Shown here: positions 14,041 to 51,013 of the stretch, piece after piece
Layout of the letters: each line of letters starts with the position of its first letter
How positions within the stretch are numbered: the stretch's first letter is position 1
Source of the DNA: Limnohabitans sp. Jir72
Lineage (GTDB): Bacteria; Pseudomonadota; Gammaproteobacteria; Burkholderiales; Burkholderiaceae_C
Length of the DNA stretch: 64,000 bases
Direction of reading: 5' to 3'
Assembly (NCBI RefSeq): GCF_003063575.1
Contig: NZ_NESC01000009.1
Coordinates: 62,001 to 126,000, forward strand
Translations under genes and position numbers: made by a program
The notes under the pieces: model-generated
Told to the model about the DNA's origin: nothing
The model's input: the letters and a program-made list of their open reading frames with translations, nothing else
The model's database searches: none

Positions 14041-14183
14041 GTCAATTCAGTGGGGGCAAGGCCATGCGTTTGCAACGGCGTGGACAGGGGGGCGGCTGTT
14101 GGTCTGCGGCTTGAGTTCCGACGTGAGACCTGTTGATTCGGCCCTTTGAAGTCTTGAACGAAAGGCATGCTGTGTGGCTTGGG

Positions 14184-14273
14184 GTAGGAGCCCACCCCGT
14201 GGGCGATGGGCGTGGAACAAGGCCCCAAGAACATCGCCCTGCCAACCATCGCCCACAGGGGTGGGCTCCCACA
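14184..14273. repeat. REP-like palindrome pair, family A
   Basis: An inverted pair beginning GTAGGAGCCCACCCCGTG and ending in the complementary CACAGGGGTGGGCTCCCAC. The 254 bp between uxuB and manD hold this pair and no recognisable gene. The same element recurs at 15754, 15864 and in the array starting at 17061, always between genes of this operon. The head GTAGGAGC resembles REP elements mobilised by RAYT transposases in Pseudomonas and other bacteria. Confidence 0.8.
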
Positions 14274-14294
14274 GGAGGAGGGCATCGGCATGGG

Positions 14295-15713
14295 TCATGC
14301 TGCTGCGGCCAGCAGTTGCTGGATGGCCGCATCCACACCATGCTGCAGGACTTGCTGGTGCCAATGCGTCACGCGGGCGACCCATGCGGCGTGGCTGGGC
14401 AGGGCCTTTCCCCACAGGTCTTCGCGGGCCAGCAGGGCGTGCACGCAGGCTTCGGGCTCGGTGCGTTGCGCAGCGCCAATGGCCATCAGGCTCTCGGCTT
14501 GTGGGTCGTTCAAGGTGTAGGCCTGGCCTTGTTCGTCCACGCCCAGCGTGTAGCGCAAGAAGACGGCTGCGGCCAGCGCGTGGTGTTCAAACGAAGCGCC
14601 TTGAGCGATTTGACCCAACACCGAGGGTGGCCAGCGCTGCGGGATTTTTTGCGAGTTGTCGGTGGCGATCTGGTGCACGCTGTGCTTCAAATACGGGTTG
14701 CCAAAGCGCGCGATCAGCGCGTCGCGGTACTCGGCCCAGTCGCTGCGGCTCAGGTGTGGCGCGACTTCGCGGCTCATGAGTTGGTGCACGAAAGTGCGGA
14801 TGTGCGGCACCCCGATGCAGCTGGCAATGAACGGCCTGCCGGTGACTGCACCCATGAGCGCCATGGCCGAGTGGCTGCCGTTGAGCATGCGAAGTTTGGC
14901 TTCTTCGTAGCTGTGCACATCACCCGTCACGCGCACACCGGCGCTTTGCAGCAGGGCCGCATCTGTCGGATCGGCAAAGCGGTCTTCGACCACCCATTCC
15001 CAAAAACCTTCGGTGCTCAGGGCGCAGTGGTCTTGCAGGCCCAGCGCCTCTTGTGCAGCCGCCATCACTTCGGGCGTGGCGGCGGGCACGATGCGGTCGA
15101 CCATGCTGCACGGAAAGGCGCACTGCGCGTCCAGCCAGCGCAGCAGTTCGGTGTCTTGCGCTGTCATGTCTTGGGCTGGTATCTCGGCCTTGACCAGCGC
15201 TTGCAGCTTGTGGCCGTTGCCTTGCAGGTTGTCGCACGAAGCGACGGTGATGCCGGGCAAACCTTTTTGCTGGCGCAGGCGCAAGCCGTCCCGCAGCAGT
15301 TGGCCCAACGCCGGGGTGTAGCCTTTTTCGGTCACTGTGAGCGTGACCCAGCGGGTGCTGGGCGCGGCAAGGGCCTGAACCACCGCATCACGCTCGGTCG
15401 CGGCCACGTTCATGCGCCACAGGGCTCCGGGCACTTGCCACTTCACACCCTGACCATCTGCCACGCGCACGGCATACAGGCCGTCTTGGGCTTTGAGCTG
15501 GTTCACCAGATCAGGCCGTGTCATGCCCACGCCGTGGATGCCCCAGCGCGTGTCGCCACTGGCCAGCAGTTGGTCAAACACCATGGCCTGGTGTGCACGG
15601 TGAAAGGCACCGAGGCCCAGGTGCACCACGCCGGGGGCGTGCGATGTGCGGTCATGCGCAGGCGCTTGAACGGTGGCGGGCAGCATCGTGAGTGAGTGGG
15701 TGCAAAGGTGCAT
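14295..15713 (-). CDS. uxuB: Mannitol dehydrogenase family oxidoreductase, fructuronate reductase type
   Basis: A 472-residue long-chain polyol dehydrogenase. UxuB reduces D-fructuronate to D-mannonate, the substrate of ManD. Seen: the N-terminal NAD-binding VVHLGLGAFHRAHQA (residues about 29-43), the family signature EAKLRMLNGSHSAMA with the catalytic Lys, Asn and His, and GNPYLKHSVHQIATD. Other family members act on mannitol, arabinitol or tagaturonate, so the exact sugar is inferred from the neighbouring manD and uxaA-type genes. It is flanked on both sides by REP family A elements. Confidence 0.82.
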   Translation of the reverse strand: MHLCTHSLTMLPATVQAPAHDRTSHAPGVVHLGLGAFHRAHQAMVFDQLLASGDTRWGIHGVGMTRPDLVNQLKAQDGLYAVRVADGQGVKWQVPGALWRMNVAATERDAVVQALAAPSTRWVTLTVTEKGYTPALGQLLRDGLRLRQQKGLPGITVASCDNLQGNGHKLQALVKAEIPAQDMTAQDTELLRWLDAQCAFPCSMVDRIVPAATPEVMAAAQEALGLQDHCALSTEGFWEWVVEDRFADPTDAALLQSAGVRVTGDVHSYEEAKLRMLNGSHSAMALMGAVTGRPFIASCIGVPHIRTFVHQLMSREVAPHLSRSDWAEYRDALIARFGNPYLKHSVHQIATDNSQKIPQRWPPSVLGQIAQGASFEHHALAAAVFLRYTLGVDEQGQAYTLNDPQAESLMAIGAAQRTEPEACVHALLAREDLWGKALPSHAAWVARVTHWHQQVLQHGVDAAIQQLLAAAA

Positions 15714-15753
15714 GGTGTCAAAAGGTGTGGGTTGAAGCAGAGGGCATTTCTTT

Positions 15754-15842
15754 GTAGGAGCGCACCCTGTGCGCGATGGGTGTGGAACACACCCTGGTCA
15801 TGGGGCCGCAAGCGCCCCATTCGCCCACGGTGTGGTCTCCGG
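15754..15842. repeat. REP-like palindrome pair, family A (degenerate)
   Basis: Begins GTAGGAGCGCACCCTGTG and is closed by a diverged inverted copy (TCGCCCACGG then TGTGGTCTCC). It lies in the 264-bp gap between the Ldh2-family gene and uxuB together with the pair at 15864; no gene is seen there. Confidence 0.7.
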
Positions 15843-15863
15843 CTCGGTAGAGGTTGGTTTTCT

Positions 15864-15954
15864 GTAGGAGCGCACCCTGTGCGCGATGGGCGTGGAACAC
15901 GCCATGACTGGATGGACCGGAAAGCCTGGAGTTGCCCACGGGGTGGGCTCCTAC
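15864..15954. repeat. REP-like palindrome pair, family A
   Basis: Begins GTAGGAGCGCACCCTGTG and ends GGGGTGGGCTCCTAC, so the two arms are inverted copies about 45 bp apart. It ends 24 bp from the stop codon of the Ldh2-family gene. Confidence 0.8.
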
Positions 15955-15977
15955 ACCGTGTTCAGGCTGTCCCCGCA

Positions 15978-17033
15978 TCATGATCTGGTCTGCAGTTTTT
16001 TCTCGGACGCCTCAATCTCTGCCCAAGTCGCGTCGTCAATCCAGATGCCGTGTTGCTCGCGCTCGGCGCGTGCAGTGCGTTCGGGCTCGCCGGCGAATTT
16101 GACGCCATCGCTGCCGGGGGCATCGGGGCTTTGGCGCAGCCAGTCGGCAAAGGCCAGGGCTTCTTGTTCGAACATGGCTTGTGTGCCCAAGCGCACCGGG
16201 TCGATCAGCATCGTGAGCATGCTGTTGAGCACGGCGCGTTTTTCATCCGCTTCGCGGTGCCAAGTACCGCCGCCGGTCAGCGCACCGCCCAGCAGTTCGC
16301 AGGCCATGGCCATGCCAAAGCCTTTGTGGTCACCAAAGGTCATGAGTGCGCCAAACAAACCGTTGGACTGCGGCACCACCACCACGCCGGGGTCGGTGGT
16401 GGGGTGGCCGTGTTCGTCGATCAAATAACCGGCTGGGACCTGTTCGCCTTTGTTGTGCGCCACGCGCATCTTGCCTTGCGCCACACGGCTGGTGGCAAAG
16501 TCCAGCACAAAGGGCGCGCGGCTGCCCATGGGCACGCCGATGCAGCAGGGGTTGGTGCCAAAGCGGCCATCGCCACCGCCAAAGGGCGCCACCACGGGGC
16601 GCGAGAGCACGTTCACAAAATGCACCGAGACCAGGCCTTGCGCCACGGCCATTTCGGCAAAGTGGCCGATGCGGCCCAGGTGGTGAGAGCGGCTCAGGGC
16701 CACGGTGCACACGCCGTGCTGCTTGGCGCGTTCAATGCCCATTTGCATGGCTTGCACGCCGGTGATTTGGCCGTAGCCGCGCTGGCCGTCGAGGTTGAGC
16801 AGCGGGCCGGTGTCCAGCAAGACCTTGACGCCCGTGTTGGGACTCAGGCCCCCTTCGAGCACGGCATCGACATAGCGCGGCACCATGCCCACGCCGTGCG
16901 AGTCGTGTCCGCTCAGGTTGGCCATGACCAAGTTGTCGGCCACCTGCGCGGCTTCGGCGGGGGTGCTGCCGGTCATGGCGATGATGCGGGTGATGTGCTG
17001 GCGCAGATCGGTGGCTGGGATGAGTTGGCTCAT
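15978..17033 (-). CDS. Ldh2/malate-lactate dehydrogenase family oxidoreductase (YbiC/HcxB-like)
   Basis: A 351-residue NAD(P)-dependent 2-hydroxyacid dehydrogenase of the Ldh2 (ComC/YiaK/YbiC) family, unrelated to classical lactate dehydrogenase. Motifs include GHDSHGVGMVPRYVD (residues about 44-58, catalytic His), SHHLGRIGHFAE, GTNPCCIGVP, DFATSRVAQGK and GDHKGFGMAM. Overall resemblance is to E. coli YbiC (hydroxycarboxylate dehydrogenase B). The ATG at 17033 gives MSQLIPATDL; the frame runs further upstream, but only through the repeat array. YiaK relatives act on sugar acids imported by TRAP transporters, which fits this operon. Confidence 0.85.
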   Translation of the reverse strand: MSQLIPATDLRQHITRIIAMTGSTPAEAAQVADNLVMANLSGHDSHGVGMVPRYVDAVLEGGLSPNTGVKVLLDTGPLLNLDGQRGYGQITGVQAMQMGIERAKQHGVCTVALSRSHHLGRIGHFAEMAVAQGLVSVHFVNVLSRPVVAPFGGGDGRFGTNPCCIGVPMGSRAPFVLDFATSRVAQGKMRVAHNKGEQVPAGYLIDEHGHPTTDPGVVVVPQSNGLFGALMTFGDHKGFGMAMACELLGGALTGGGTWHREADEKRAVLNSMLTMLIDPVRLGTQAMFEQEALAFADWLRQSPDAPGSDGVKFAGEPERTARAEREQHGIWIDDATWAEIEASEKKLQTRS

Positions 17034-17060
17034 GAGGGGGGCTTTCAAGACGATGAGGTT

Positions 17061-17465
17061 GTAGCGGTGTACCGCTGTGCGCGATCGTTTTTGGGGCGTG
17101 TGCCACGCCCATCGCCCACGGGGTGGGCTCCTACATGGAGGGTGTGGGTCTTTGTAGGAGCGCACCCTGTGCGCGATGTTTTTTTGAGGCGTGTGCCACG
17201 CCCATCGCCCACGGGGTTGGCTCCTACACGGAGGGTGTTGGTTTTTGTGGGAGCGCACCCTGTGCGCGATGTTTTTTTGGGGCGTGTGCCACGCCCATCG
17301 CCCACAGGGTGGGCTCCTACACGGAGGGTGTGGGTCTTTGTAGGAGCGCACCCTGTGCGCGATGTTTTTTTGAGGCGTCTGTCACGCCCATCGCCCACGG
17401 GGTGGGCTCCTACAGGGAGGGTGTGGGTCTTTGTAGGAGCGCACCCCGTGCGCGATGGGGGGTGG
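17061..17465. repeat. Tandem array of REP-like units with an exact 93-bp period
   Basis: Unit heads lie at 17061 (degenerate GTAGCGG), 17154, 17247 (GTGGGAG), 17340 and 17433, each 93 bp apart. Each unit holds a forward arm (GTAGGAGCGCACCCTGTG), a T-rich spacer (GATGTTTTTTT), an inner GGCGTGTGCCACGCC palindrome and an inverted arm ending GGTGGGCTCCTAC. The array fills the 454-bp gap between the UxaA-type gene and the Ldh2-family gene. Because 93 is a multiple of three, frames stay open through it on both strands and spell 31-residue repeats, which should not be read as genes. Confidence 0.9.
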
Positions 17466-17487
17466 ACCATGAGGCAGGCCAATGGAT

Positions 17488-19014
17488 TCACATCACCGCG
17501 CCCACTTGCCAGGGCACAAACTCGTTTTGCCCGTAGCCGTGGCGCTCGCTCTTGGTGGGTTCACCCGAGGCGGCGGCCAGGATCATCTCGAAGATGCGCT
17601 GACCCATGTCGGCGATGCTCACGCCGCCGTCCACGATTTCGCCGCAGTTCAGGTCCATGTCTTCTTCTTGCTTTTTCCAAAGCGCGGTGTTGGTCGAAAA
17701 CTTCAGACTGGGCGAGGGTGCGCAGCCATAAGCGCTGCCGCGTCCGGTGGTGAAGCAAATCAGGTTGGCGCCGCCCGCCACCTGGCCTGTGGCGCTGACC
17801 GGGTCGTAGCCGGGCGTGTCCATGTACACAAAGCCTTTGGCGGTGACGGGCTCGGCGTATTCGTACACCGCTTGCAGGTTGCTGGTGCCACCCTTGGCCA
17901 CGGCACCCAGAGACTTTTCAAGGATGGTGGTCAGGCCACCCGCCTTGTTGCCGGGCGAGGGGTTGTTGTTCATCTCGCCGCCGTTGATGGCGGTGTAGTT
18001 TTCCCACCAGCGGATGCGCTCGATGAGTTTGTGTGCCACTTCAGGTTTCACGGCACGGCGCGTGAGCAAATGCTCTGCACCATAAATTTCGGGTGTTTCG
18101 CTCAGGATGGCGGTGCCGCCGTGCTGCACCAACAGGTCCACCGCTGCGCCCAGCGCCGGGTTGGCGCTGATGCCCGAATAGCCGTCCGAGCCGCCGCACT
18201 GCAGGCCTACGGTGATGTGCTCGGCGCTGCAAGGCTCGCGGGTGATGGCGTTGGCGCGGGGCAGCATTTCTTCGATCAGGGCAATGCCTTTTTCCACCGT
18301 GAGGCGCGTGCCGCCCGTGTCCTGGATGTTGAAGACCTTGAGCGTGTCGCCCTCGCGCAGACTGCTGTGTGCGAGCCAGGTGTTGAGCTGGTTGGCTTCG
18401 CAGCCCAGGCCCACCACCACCACGCCCCAGAAGTTGGCGTGTGTGGCGTAACCGGCCAGCGTGCGCTCCAGCAGCTGGATGCCCAGCCCTTCGGTGTCCA
18501 TGCCGCAGCCGGTGCCGTGGGTCAAGGCGACCACGCCGTCCACATTCGGAAAGTTGGCGAGTGCCGAGGGGTTGTTGCGTTTGGAGAAATGGTCGGCAAT
18601 GGCGCGTGCCGCAGTGGCCGAACAGTTCACGCTGGAGAGCACACCGATGTAGTTGCGTGTGGCCACGCGACCATCGCTGCGTTTGTAGCCCATGAAGTTG
18701 GCTTGCTTGCGCATGGGCTCGGGTTTGACGTCTTGACCGATGGCGTAGTCGCGCTCGAAGTTGCCTTTTTCAGCGCCCATGTTCAGGTTGTGCGTGTGCA
18801 CATGTTCACCCGGTGCAATGGCCTGTGAGGCGAAGCCAATGATCTGGTTGTAGCGGCGCACCGGTTCACCGGCAGAGATGGCGCGGGTCGCCACTTTGTG
18901 GCCCGGCGGGATCAGGCCGCGCACGGCCACGCTGTCCACCGTTGTGCCGCTCATGAGTTGAGCGCGGGCGATGACCACGTCATCGGAGGGATGCAGGCGA
19001 ATGAAAGAACTCAT
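17488..19014 (-). CDS. uxaA: UxaA/GarD family altronate or galactarate dehydratase
   Basis: A 508-residue sugar acid dehydratase. The N-terminal SAF-like domain (residues about 1-90) contains GHKVATRAISAGEPVRRYNQIIGFA, typical of UxaA (read in parts). The catalytic domain has GYKRSDGRVATRNYIGVLSSVNCSA in segments, THGTGCGMDTEG, LGCEANQ, QCGGSDGYSGISANP and C-terminal TGRGSAYGCAP. The conserved cysteines fit the iron-dependent family. Altronate would give 2-keto-3-deoxygluconate, the same product as ManD. A galactarate or related substrate cannot be excluded. It lies 9 bp downstream of dctM. Confidence 0.85.
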   Translation of the reverse strand: MSSFIRLHPSDDVVIARAQLMSGTTVDSVAVRGLIPPGHKVATRAISAGEPVRRYNQIIGFASQAIAPGEHVHTHNLNMGAEKGNFERDYAIGQDVKPEPMRKQANFMGYKRSDGRVATRNYIGVLSSVNCSATAARAIADHFSKRNNPSALANFPNVDGVVALTHGTGCGMDTEGLGIQLLERTLAGYATHANFWGVVVVGLGCEANQLNTWLAHSSLREGDTLKVFNIQDTGGTRLTVEKGIALIEEMLPRANAITREPCSAEHITVGLQCGGSDGYSGISANPALGAAVDLLVQHGGTAILSETPEIYGAEHLLTRRAVKPEVAHKLIERIRWWENYTAINGGEMNNNPSPGNKAGGLTTILEKSLGAVAKGGTSNLQAVYEYAEPVTAKGFVYMDTPGYDPVSATGQVAGGANLICFTTGRGSAYGCAPSPSLKFSTNTALWKKQEEDMDLNCGEIVDGGVSIADMGQRIFEMILAAASGEPTKSERHGYGQNEFVPWQVGAVM

Positions 19015-19023
19015 GGCAAAGCC

Positions 19024-20418
19024 TCAATAAAACTGCTTGGGCAACCACAGCACCAAGCTGGGCACGTAGGTGATGACGATCAAGCTGCCCAACAATGGGA
19101 ACAGCCAAGGCAAGATGGCGCGTGTGGTGGCTTCCACGCTCAGGCGGGCCACACGGGCCAGCACAAACAGCACCATGCCCATGGGCGGGTGCAACAGGCC
19201 GATCATCAGGTTGAGCACCATGACCAGACCGAAGTGCACCAAGTCAATGCCCAGCTTCTGGCAAATCGGCACCAGGATCGGCACGAGGATGGTGATGGCC
19301 GCGGTGGGCTCCAAGAAGCAGCCGACAAACAGCATCAAGGCGTTGGCCAGTAACAGGAAGACCCAAGGCGTTTGCGTGAAGCCCAAAACCCATTCGCTGA
19401 TGGCCGAGGTCACGCCTGTGGCGGTGAGCATCCAGCCAAAAATGCTGGCGGCCGCCACGATGAACAGAACCGTGGCGGTGGTCTCCACCGTGTCCAAGCA
19501 GATCTTCACGAACATCTTGAAGTTGAGCGTTCGGTACCAGAAGAAGCCCAGTGCAATCGCCCATACGCAAGCGGCAATCGCGCCTTCTGTGGGGGTGAAC
19601 ACGCCGGTGGTCATGCCGCCGATCAGCAGCACGGGCGTCATGATGGGCAGCACGGCTTGAAAGTTGAAAAATTTGTCCGCCGCGAACAGCACCAGTAAGG
19701 CGGCAAAAACGGTGATTTGCGGTGGCGTGCCCATGGCGGTGACCAACCACCAGATGGACAAGGGCCAAGCCACAACCACGCCGGTTTCGGCCAGCGCCTT
19801 GATGACTTTGCCCCAGTCGAATTTGACGTCGGCACCCCAGCCGTTTTTGTGCGCGAAGAAGGCCACGGTGAGCATCATCAGCAGCGCCATCAGGATGCCA
19901 GGCAAGATGCCCGCCAAGAACAAGGCTCCCACCGACACGTTGGCCATCATGCCGTAAATCACGAAGGGCAAGCTGGGCGGGATGATGGGGCCAAGTGTGG
20001 CCGAAGCCGCCGTGACGCCCACCGCAAACTCGGTGCTGTAGCCGTGGTCTTTCATGGCCTTGATCTCGATGGTGCCCAGGCCTGCCGCGTCGGCAATCGC
20101 CGTGCCACTCATGCCAGCGAACACGACCGAGCCGACCACGTTGACGTGGCCGAGGCCCCCTTTGAGCCAGCCCACCAAGGCCAGCGCGTAGTTGTAGATG
20201 CGGTTGGTGATGCCCGCGTTGTTCATCAGGTTACCCGCCAGAATGAAAAACGGCACGGCCAAGAGCGGAAAGCTGTCGATGCCTGAGACCATGCGGTGGA
20301 TGACCACAAAAGGCGGCGAGCTTTCAACAAAGAACAGGTACAACAAAGAGGCGCCCGCCATGGCGATGGCCACCGGAATACCGCCACTCATGAGGATGAG
20401 GAAAAGAATTTTCAGCAT
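19024..20418 (-). CDS. dctM: TRAP transporter large permease (DctM)
   Basis: A 464-residue membrane protein with about 12 hydrophobic segments, the proton or sodium-coupled permease of a TRAP importer. Family motifs are PFFILAGNLMNNAGIT, GLGHVNVVGSVVFAGMSGTAIADAAGLG, SATLGPIIPPSLPFVIYG, FTPTEGAIAACVWA and LLHPPMGMVLFV (long ones read in segments). The ATG at 20418 gives the usual DctM N terminus MLKILFLILMSGG. It lies between the small permease gene (25 bp upstream) and the UxaA-type gene (9 bp downstream). Confidence 0.93.
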   Translation of the reverse strand: MLKILFLILMSGGIPVAIAMAGASLLYLFFVESSPPFVVIHRMVSGIDSFPLLAVPFFILAGNLMNNAGITNRIYNYALALVGWLKGGLGHVNVVGSVVFAGMSGTAIADAAGLGTIEIKAMKDHGYSTEFAVGVTAASATLGPIIPPSLPFVIYGMMANVSVGALFLAGILPGILMALLMMLTVAFFAHKNGWGADVKFDWGKVIKALAETGVVVAWPLSIWWLVTAMGTPPQITVFAALLVLFAADKFFNFQAVLPIMTPVLLIGGMTTGVFTPTEGAIAACVWAIALGFFWYRTLNFKMFVKICLDTVETTATVLFIVAAASIFGWMLTATGVTSAISEWVLGFTQTPWVFLLLANALMLFVGCFLEPTAAITILVPILVPICQKLGIDLVHFGLVMVLNLMIGLLHPPMGMVLFVLARVARLSVEATTRAILPWLFPLLGSLIVITYVPSLVLWLPKQFY

Positions 20419-50790: not shown

Positions 50791-51013
50791 CATGGTGTGC
50801 TGGACTGGGAAGTTGATTTTGATGACTTCCCTAGGATTTATCCTGTTTTTTTGAAATTTTTACTTCCTTTAGGTATTACTTTCATTGCGCTTCGTAAGTG
50901 TCTAATTTTTAAAGAAATTTCCCTTTGAGTGACCTGAAAATTATGCGCTAAGCTGTTGATTTCATTGAAAAAATCTGACATGCCGCATCGCTGCGAAAGC
51001 TTTTCCTGATACA
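50791..51013. other. AT-rich intergenic region before the dcw cluster
   Basis: The stretch between the dksA terminator and the MraZ boxes is markedly richer in A and T than its surroundings (for example CTGTTTTTTTGAAATTTTTAC). No convincing gene is present; a 63-codon minus-strand frame shows no recognisable similarity. It probably contains the main mraZ promoter, but no sigma-70 pair with good spacing stands out. Confidence 0.6.

What the first reader, a model, noticed from the sequence alone, without database searches (positions are those of the whole stretch)
17061..17465. Five REP-like units in a tandem array with an exact 93-bp period inside an operon
Unit heads at 17061, 17154, 17247, 17340 and 17433 are exactly 93 bp apart and near-identical in sequence. 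Each unit has two inverted arms, a run of seven T and an inner palindrome. The array lies between two genes that appear cotranscribed. It could slow or stop transcription, stabilise upstream mRNA, bind gyrase or IHF as BIMEs do, or vary in copy number between strains. The T run inside each unit makes repeated partial termination an attractive possibility.
Basis: partly seen in the sequence, partly recalled or inferred. Interest (0 to 1): 0.7.

Follow-up and report, generated by a model that had tools for sequence, protein, structure and literature searches.

The report
REPIN tandem array between operon genes
A short hairpin-forming mobile DNA repeat landed between two sugar-acid breakdown genes of a freshwater bacterium and was copied head to tail; related species carry zero, one, two or four extra copies at the same spot, so it is a clear but essentially ordinary example of a known kind of bacterial repeat.

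Summary
The 93-bp array is real: four complete units and a fifth head, filling most of the 454-bp gap between a UxaA-type dehydratase gene and a PRK10098-type dehydrogenase gene in a genome of the Limnohabitans genus. Each unit is a REPIN (two GTAG-tagged REP hairpins in inverted orientation around a 24-nt interior) plus a 19-bp spacer. The genome holds 267 REP cores (reversed-pattern control 0) and at least 11 other tandem arrays with their own periods. A RAYT transposase gene is flanked by the same REP type.

At the orthologous gap, with matching outer flanks, relatives carry a lone REP (four species), one unit (three) or two units (one); this genome carries four. RAYT dispersal followed by gain and loss of whole units between directly repeated REPs explains this best.

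The T-run termination idea fails in the gene direction: all terminator-like matches are on the antisense strand. No IHF consensus lies in the array. Any effect on mRNA is untested. The least expected result: other species carry unrelated palindromic repeats in this same gap (28 of 59 gaps carry some recognised palindromic insert). New member of a known kind.

The parts
17061..17457 (.). Tandem REPIN array: four 93-bp units plus a fifth head
17034..17487 (-). Intergenic gap (454 bp) between the UxaA-type gene and the dehydrogenase gene that holds the array
17061..17085 (+). Degenerate first head (remnant of a G-type REP)
   Evidence: a similar degenerate head in G008 and G018
17154..17178 (+). 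REP, G-type (GCGCAC/GTGCGC stem, GTAG tag)
17247..17271 (+). REP, G-type (GTGG tag)
17340..17364 (+). REP, G-type
17433..17457 (+). Terminal lone REP, G-type
17110..17134 (-). REP, C-type (GCCCAC/GTGGGC stem), inverted partner of unit 1
17203..17227 (-). REP, C-type, inverted partner of unit 2 (one stem mismatch)
17296..17320 (-). REP, C-type, inverted partner of unit 3
17389..17413 (-). REP, C-type, inverted partner of unit 4
17179..17202 (.). 24-nt REPIN interior with T7 and inner palindrome (unit 2; equivalents at 17086-17109, 17272-17295, 17365-17388)
   Evidence: similar interiors in dispersed REPINs of the same genome
17228..17246 (.). 19-bp spacer between REPINs (equivalents at 17135-17153, 17321-17339, 17414-17432)
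17488..19014 (-). UxaA/galactarate-dehydratase-like gene, upstream of the array in the direction of transcription
   Evidence: TIGR03248 382.5 bits, below its equivalog cut-off of 730.85
15978..17033 (-). Malate/lactate/ureidoglycolate dehydrogenase-type gene (PRK10098), downstream of the array
   Evidence: 513.8 bits, cut-off 336
14184..14208 (+). Further REP, C-type, in the gap 14041-14294 of the same gene cluster
15754..15778 (+). Further REP, G-type, in the gap 15714-15977
15864..15888 (+). Further REP, G-type, in the gap 15714-15977
15930..15954 (+). Further REP, C-type, slightly degenerate, inverted (listed + by the query, which is the reverse complement of the REP)

Best explanation
It is a tandem array of REPINs, the non-autonomous mobile unit made of two inverted GTAG-tagged REPs. 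Step 1 (inferred; the pairing of gene and repeat is shown): the RAYT encoded on contig C1, flanked by the same REP type, dispersed REPINs of about 74 bp into gaps between genes. Step 2 (shown by comparison): at the uxaA-ldh gap a three-REP cluster (REP, spacer, REP, interior, REP) exists in several relatives; it is one 93-bp unit bounded by two directly repeated REPs. Step 3 (copy numbers shown, exchange mechanism inferred): recombination or replication slippage between the direct repeats adds or removes whole units, giving lone REPs in some species and four units here. The array is probably transcribed with the operon as a highly structured spacer and probably has no dedicated function.
For: 267 REP cores in the genome, reversed-pattern control 0. 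RAYT family hit and flanking REPs; the protein shows an HLH motif and a tyrosine in the expected region (sequence, assignment recalled), and TnpA-REP 4er8 is the only PDB match at E <= 0.001, E 1.9e-8. 67 head-to-head REP pairs in the own-genome loci examined, 62 of them 72-77 bp long. Twelve tandem arrays including this one, periods 81-159; spacers alike within arrays (mean identity 0.79 over nine arrays) and unlike between arrays (mean 0.35, maximum 0.71). Copy series with matching outer flanks: gap 81/82 (four species), 174/175/187 (three), 266 (one), 454 (own). The three variable stem pairs are complementary in 188 of 205 distinct REP places. Genomes with a RAYT hit of 150 bits or more hold more REPs (23 of 90 genomes, median 11 against 0, Mann-Whitney p 5e-5).
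Against: The RAYT-REP link across the genus has exceptions: of 67 genomes without a strong RAYT hit 6 hold 20 or more REPs (G023 has 91), and of 23 with one 14 hold fewer than 20; G006, G037, G067 and G073 hold none by this pattern. The p-value is not corrected for shared ancestry. The direction of change is not settled: carriers fall in more than one clade of gene trees with many weak forks, so transfer of the locus between lineages is possible. Interiors are only moderately alike between arrays (mean 0.62), so there are several REPIN subtypes. Three of the four lone REPs (G028, G029, G032) are slightly degenerate and missed by the strict pattern; they were identified by eye. No transposition or transcription was observed.
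Confidence: 0.88

Rival explanations
1. The array tunes the operon at the RNA level: tandem hairpins stop 3' exonucleases and stabilise the upstream uxaA part, so the copy number is under selection.
For: The gap RNA folds far better than shuffles on the gene strand (-234.6 against -154.1 kcal/mol, z -14.3, 0 of 100 shuffles as good). The gap often holds palindromic repeats across the genus (28 of 59 gaps), while the dctQ-dctM and dctM-uxaA gaps of the same operon stay at 32 and 49 bp or less (31 and 44 loci).
Against: Strong folding follows automatically from inverted repeats. 31 of 59 gaps have no recognised repeat. Other gaps of the cluster are also long or variable: dctP-dctQ 67-178 bp, ldh-uxuB up to 454, uxuB-mandh up to 254. 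No copy number is conserved. The first REP starts 31 nt after the stop codon, beyond the 15 nt within which ribosome stalling by REPs is reported (passage of PMC12306157).
Confidence: 0.2
2. The units are repeated partial intrinsic terminators.
For: Terminator-like matches are in excess in 15700-19300 (15 against 3.5 +/- 2.0 in shuffles), 10 of them in the array, three with the perfect REP hairpin followed by GATG and the T run.
Against: All 15 are on the + strand; the genes run on the - strand, where the run is A. A GATG tetramer separates the stem and the T run. Only three of five units have seven T.
Confidence: 0.04
3. The array is a BIME-type binding platform for IHF or gyrase.
For: Alternating REPs at a fixed period resemble BIMEs (general knowledge).
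Against: No IHF consensus WATCAANNNNTTR in the array (one match in the 64-kb window, at 50949; 0.73 expected by chance). Gyrase binding cannot be tested here.
Confidence: 0.05
4. The array arose by several separate REPIN insertions rather than by tandem duplication in place.
For: REPINs are dispersed through the genome.
Against: The 19-bp spacers are repeated with the units (0.89 identity here, 1.00 in the C34 array) but differ between arrays (mean 0.35), and unit counts change in steps of about 93 bp between matching flanks.
Confidence: 0.04

Closest known systems
REPIN tandem clusters of Pseudomonas fluorescens SBW25 (PMC3116915, passages seen)
   Same: [quoted passage not shown] the largest SBW25 cluster is four REPINs plus one REP; some clusters lie next to RAYT genes.
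   Different: A betaproteobacterial REP sequence; arms of two stem types within one REPIN; here a copy series across species at one site is visible.
GTAG superfamily of REPs, GTAG-1 layout (PMC3733652, sections 5, 14, 15, 16 read)
   Same: GTAG tag, an unpaired dinucleotide between tag and stem, a short motif on the other side, head-to-head dimers with structured spacers, heterodimers, tandem reiteration with flanking DNA.
   Different: Limnohabitans is not mentioned in its main text. I did not see its figure of consensus sequences, so the exact family was not matched.
Xanthomonas axonopodis REP in the table of PMC2817692 (passage seen)
   Same: GTAGGAGCGCACC, the same first 13 bases as the G-type REP here, and a cognate RAYT.
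   Different: Different loop and trailing bases; a gammaproteobacterium.
BIME-2 arrays of E. coli (recalled)
   Same: Alternating REPs in tandem with a fixed period between genes.
   Different: REP sequence and spacers differ; no IHF consensus here.

Membership tests
REP, GTAG superfamily (GTAG-1-like) | GTAG (or close variant) tag beside a short palindromic stem-loop | tested here: met
   nine REPs in the array, one degenerate head and one (17203) with a stem mismatch that folds no better than shuffles
REP, GTAG superfamily (GTAG-1-like) | High copy number in the genome | tested here: met
   267 cores, reversed-pattern control 0
REP, GTAG superfamily (GTAG-1-like) | Extragenic position | tested here: inconclusive
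   In the window the 11 exact cores and one near core lie in three intergenic gaps; genome-wide position was not tested
REP, GTAG superfamily (GTAG-1-like) | Stem kept by compensating changes | tested here: met
   188 of 205 distinct places complementary at the three variable pairs; the search pattern fixed the outer stem and allowed any bases at two of the three pairs
REPIN | Two REPs inverted, GTAG outside, with a recurring interior, dispersed as one unit | tested here: met
   67 pairs, 62 of 72-77 bp, recurring interiors on separate contigs
REPIN | Forms one long hairpin in single strand | tested here: met
   74-nt DNA fold -25.5 kcal/mol, z -6.2; prediction only
REPIN / RAYT system | Cognate RAYT gene flanked by the same REPs | tested here: met
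REPIN / RAYT system | RAYT binds, cuts and moves the element | not testable with these tools
   needs an in vitro or in vivo assay
Tandem REPIN cluster | Near-identical REPINs repeated together with flanking sequence | tested here: met
BIME with IHF site | IHF consensus inside the repeat | tested here: not met
BIME binding gyrase | Gyrase binding and cleavage | not testable with these tools
   none
Intrinsic terminator in the gene direction | GC hairpin followed by a T run on the coding strand | tested here: not met
   0 of 15 matches on the - strand
Known RNA family (Rfam) | Match above the gathering score | tested here: not met
   nine matches, all far below the gathering scores of microRNA models

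The most novel reading that the evidence does not exclude
The uxaA-ldh gap is a landing site under selection. Several dispersed palindromic repeat families (this REPIN, a GTAGGTCGG repeat, a TCATCCCGG repeat and a low-copy GGGACAGATC hairpin) have entered the same gap in different species, and at least two of them differ in tandem copy number there. Unrelated mobile hairpins may thus be used interchangeably as a tunable RNA spacer between the dehydratase and the dehydrogenase.
Probability: 0.13. Interest if true: 0.55.

Novelty: new member of a known kind. Interest (0 to 1): 0.3.

Why it matters
The locus gives a natural series (a lone REP, then one, two and four units) at one site with matching flanks, so the gain and loss of REPIN units and any effect on an operon can be tested directly. 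My searches found no paper that names both Limnohabitans and REPIN or Limnohabitans and repetitive extragenic, and the genus is not named in the main text of PMC3733652 or PMC12306157. The library holds only openly licensed papers.

Tried and rejected
Rfam search of the gap: nine matches up to E 0.0029, all to microRNA models and far below gathering scores; rejected. IHF site: none in the array. Terminator idea: wrong strand. Gene trees to polarise gain and loss: many weak forks and carriers in more than one clade, so the direction stays open. Spacer comparison: 14 array loci were given; my expression found two or more spacers in nine only (three gave none, two gave one), and one of the nine (C42_33k, 0.19) is a parsing error because a REPIN was skipped; it is kept in the mean. 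A literature search for REPIN array copy-number variation listed only papers that look unrelated by title.

The comparison of the gap covers 59 genomes, the own genome included. 86 of 90 genus genomes had a match to the protein; I took the 60 with a near-full-length match of 92% identity or more and left out G068 (contig ends just downstream). Partial and more distant matches were not examined. The family labels of the occupants come from short expressions and reading by eye; the two CGTC-like labels are recalled resemblances to CGTC repeats, not tests. One label (G011 as this REP) was a false match of the expression and was set to the GTAGGTCGG family; G029 and G061 had no label and were placed by eye; G047 holds a related but separate degenerate insert and was counted as other.

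Full report
What is there. The region 17061-17457 holds heads exactly 93 bp apart. A unit reads: a 25-bp REP (G-type, stem GCGCAC/GTGCGC), 24 nt of interior with a T run and a small palindrome, a 25-bp inverted REP (C-type, stem GCCCAC/GTGGGC), and a 19-bp spacer. There are four units and a final lone head. The first head is degenerate, and the run of seven T is present in three units only. The arms are not a chance find: 10 and 11 matches in the window, 0 in 100 shuffles. With a looser core the window has 11 exact matches and 5 with two mismatches. The 11 exact ones and one of the five (15931) lie in three neighbouring gaps of one gene cluster; the other four are scattered and at chance level (1.17 expected).

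Surroundings. The array lies in a 454-bp gap between a UxaA/galactarate-dehydratase-like gene (17488-19014, minus) and a PRK10098-type dehydrogenase gene (15978-17033, minus). By my reading of the ORF translations and recall, the cluster also carries TRAP-transporter-like genes and further sugar-acid enzyme genes. Limnohabitans sp. Rim28 tops the list of named relatives (96% protein identity).

Genome-wide. The REP core occurs 267 times in the 3.69-Mb genome; the reversed-pattern control is 0. Of 67 head-to-head pairs found in the own-genome loci examined, 62 are 72-77 bp long; 14 of the 67 combine a C-type and a G-type arm, as here, and interiors recur on separate contigs. So the pair with its interior, a REPIN, is the dispersed unit. 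TRF found 11 further arrays in 14 loci examined (two loci show the same array, two show none), with periods of 81-159 bp. Spacers are alike within an array (mean 0.79 over nine arrays; 0.89 here) and unlike between arrays (mean 0.35, maximum 0.71); interiors are 0.62 alike between arrays on average. The arrays therefore most likely grew in place.

Transposase. Four Y1-type genes are present. The two on C1 (138.9 bits) and C23 (149.1 bits) are related to each other (58% identity) and lie over the RAYT cut-off of 80; a third on C12 scores 178.3, and the fourth, on C23, is just below the cut-off (79.7). The C1 gene is flanked by REPs of the present type. The C23 gene of 149.1 bits is flanked by a different REP type (GGAGCCCCGCCC.. 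and GGAGCGGCGCC..). My expression found none beside the other two. The C1 protein has an HLH motif and a tyrosine in the expected region (sequence; the assignment is recalled), and its only PDB match is TnpA-REP 4er8. Across 90 genomes of the genus, the 23 with a RAYT hit of 150 bits or more hold more REPs (median 11 against 0, p 5e-5; without the own genome 1.2e-4). There are exceptions both ways: 6 of 67 genomes without such a hit hold 20 or more REPs, and 14 of 23 with one hold fewer than 20. Shared ancestry was not corrected for.

The copy series. I compared the orthologous gap in 59 genomes. Nine share similar outer flanks. Four have a lone REP (gap 81 or 82), three have one unit (174, 175, 187), one has two (266), and this genome has four (454). 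The left flank is 30 bp in eight of the nine (42 in G018, which explains its longer gap). Three of the four lone REPs (G028, G029, G032) carry a base change or insertion, fail the strict pattern and were placed by eye. The degenerate last head is shared by G000, G008 and G018. Because spacer and interior are alike in the one-unit, two-unit and four-unit species, the three-REP cluster most likely arose once, and lone REPs are most likely deletions between two direct REPs. The gene trees are too weak to prove this, and carriers fall in more than one clade.

Mechanism. RAYT dispersal of REPINs is inferred from the pairing of gene and repeat. Unit gain and loss by recombination or slippage between direct REPs is inferred from whole-unit steps. 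Compensating stem changes (188 of 205 distinct places complementary, over the loci held) indicate that each REP hairpin is kept as a structure.

Effect on the operon. Terminator-like matches are in excess (15 against 3.5 in shuffles), but all are on the strand opposite to the genes. No IHF consensus lies in the array. The RNA would be highly structured (z -14.3), which could slow decay, but that follows from any set of inverted repeats. The first REP begins 31 nt after the stop codon, outside the 15 nt reported for ribosome stalling (passages of PMC12306157).

A less expected point. In 19 other genomes of the 59 the same gap holds another palindromic insert: TCATCCCGG type (6), GGGACAGATC hairpin (5), GTAGGTCGG type (4), CGTCATGGCG type (2), other GTAG types (2); 31 hold none that I recognised. 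GTAGGTCGG has 38-76 copies in its four carriers (10 in the own genome, 2 in G022), and TCATCCCGG has 15-82 in six carriers (1 in the own genome, 0 in G022). GGGACAGATC is a low-copy repeat with 3-11 in its five carriers and 2 each in the two non-carriers searched. The CGTCATGGCG type was not counted. The GGGACAGATC insert occurs as one or two units (gaps of 50-52 against 90-91). In the same operon the dctQ-dctM gap (31 loci) stays at 32 bp or less and the dctM-uxaA gap (44 loci) at 49 or less. But dctP-dctQ is 67-178 (14 loci), ldh-uxuB reaches 454 (62 loci), uxuB-mandh reaches 254 (13 loci), and one named relative has a uxaA-ldh gap of 1155 without REPs (the counts include some duplicate loci). 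The gap is thus permissive or favoured; which of the two, I cannot tell.

Known or new. PMC3116915 (passages seen) describes tandem clusters of near-identical REPINs with flanks, the largest being four REPINs plus one REP, and clusters beside RAYT genes. PMC3733652 (sections 5, 14, 15 and 16 read) describes head-to-head heterodimers, structured spacers and tandem reiteration with flanking DNA. This is a new member of a known kind.

Noticed in passing
L003:1231-1928 (G000 contig C23): A second RAYT gene is flanked by a different REP type with two stem variants, so the genome seems to hold two RAYT-REP pairs.
   Followed up: partly
uxaA-ldh gap in L117-L142, L191-L201: The same gap holds unrelated palindromic repeat families in other species of the genus.
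   Followed up: partly
17034-17351 (-): The 93-bp period is 31 codons, so the dehydrogenase ORF stays open through much of the array from a GTG at 17351; automatic annotation may place its start too far upstream.
   Followed up: no
uxaA-ldh gap of L117, L118, L138 (one unit) and L130, L133 (two units): The GGGACAGATCTTTAGCTCTGTCCC hairpin occurs as one unit (G014, G016, G065) or two units 39 bp apart (G030, G041).
   Followed up: partly
G003 contig C28:49780-50892: The GTAGGTCGG family also forms a long tandem array with a period of about 91-92 bp in a related genome.
   Followed up: no
G000 C1:260900-268900 (L179, L180): A dense field of REPINs, most with a distinct interior type, surrounds the C1 RAYT gene.
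   Followed up: partly
15714-15977 and 14041-14294: The next two gaps of the same gene cluster also carry REPs; elsewhere in the 64-kb window only chance-level two-mismatch matches occur.
   Followed up: partly
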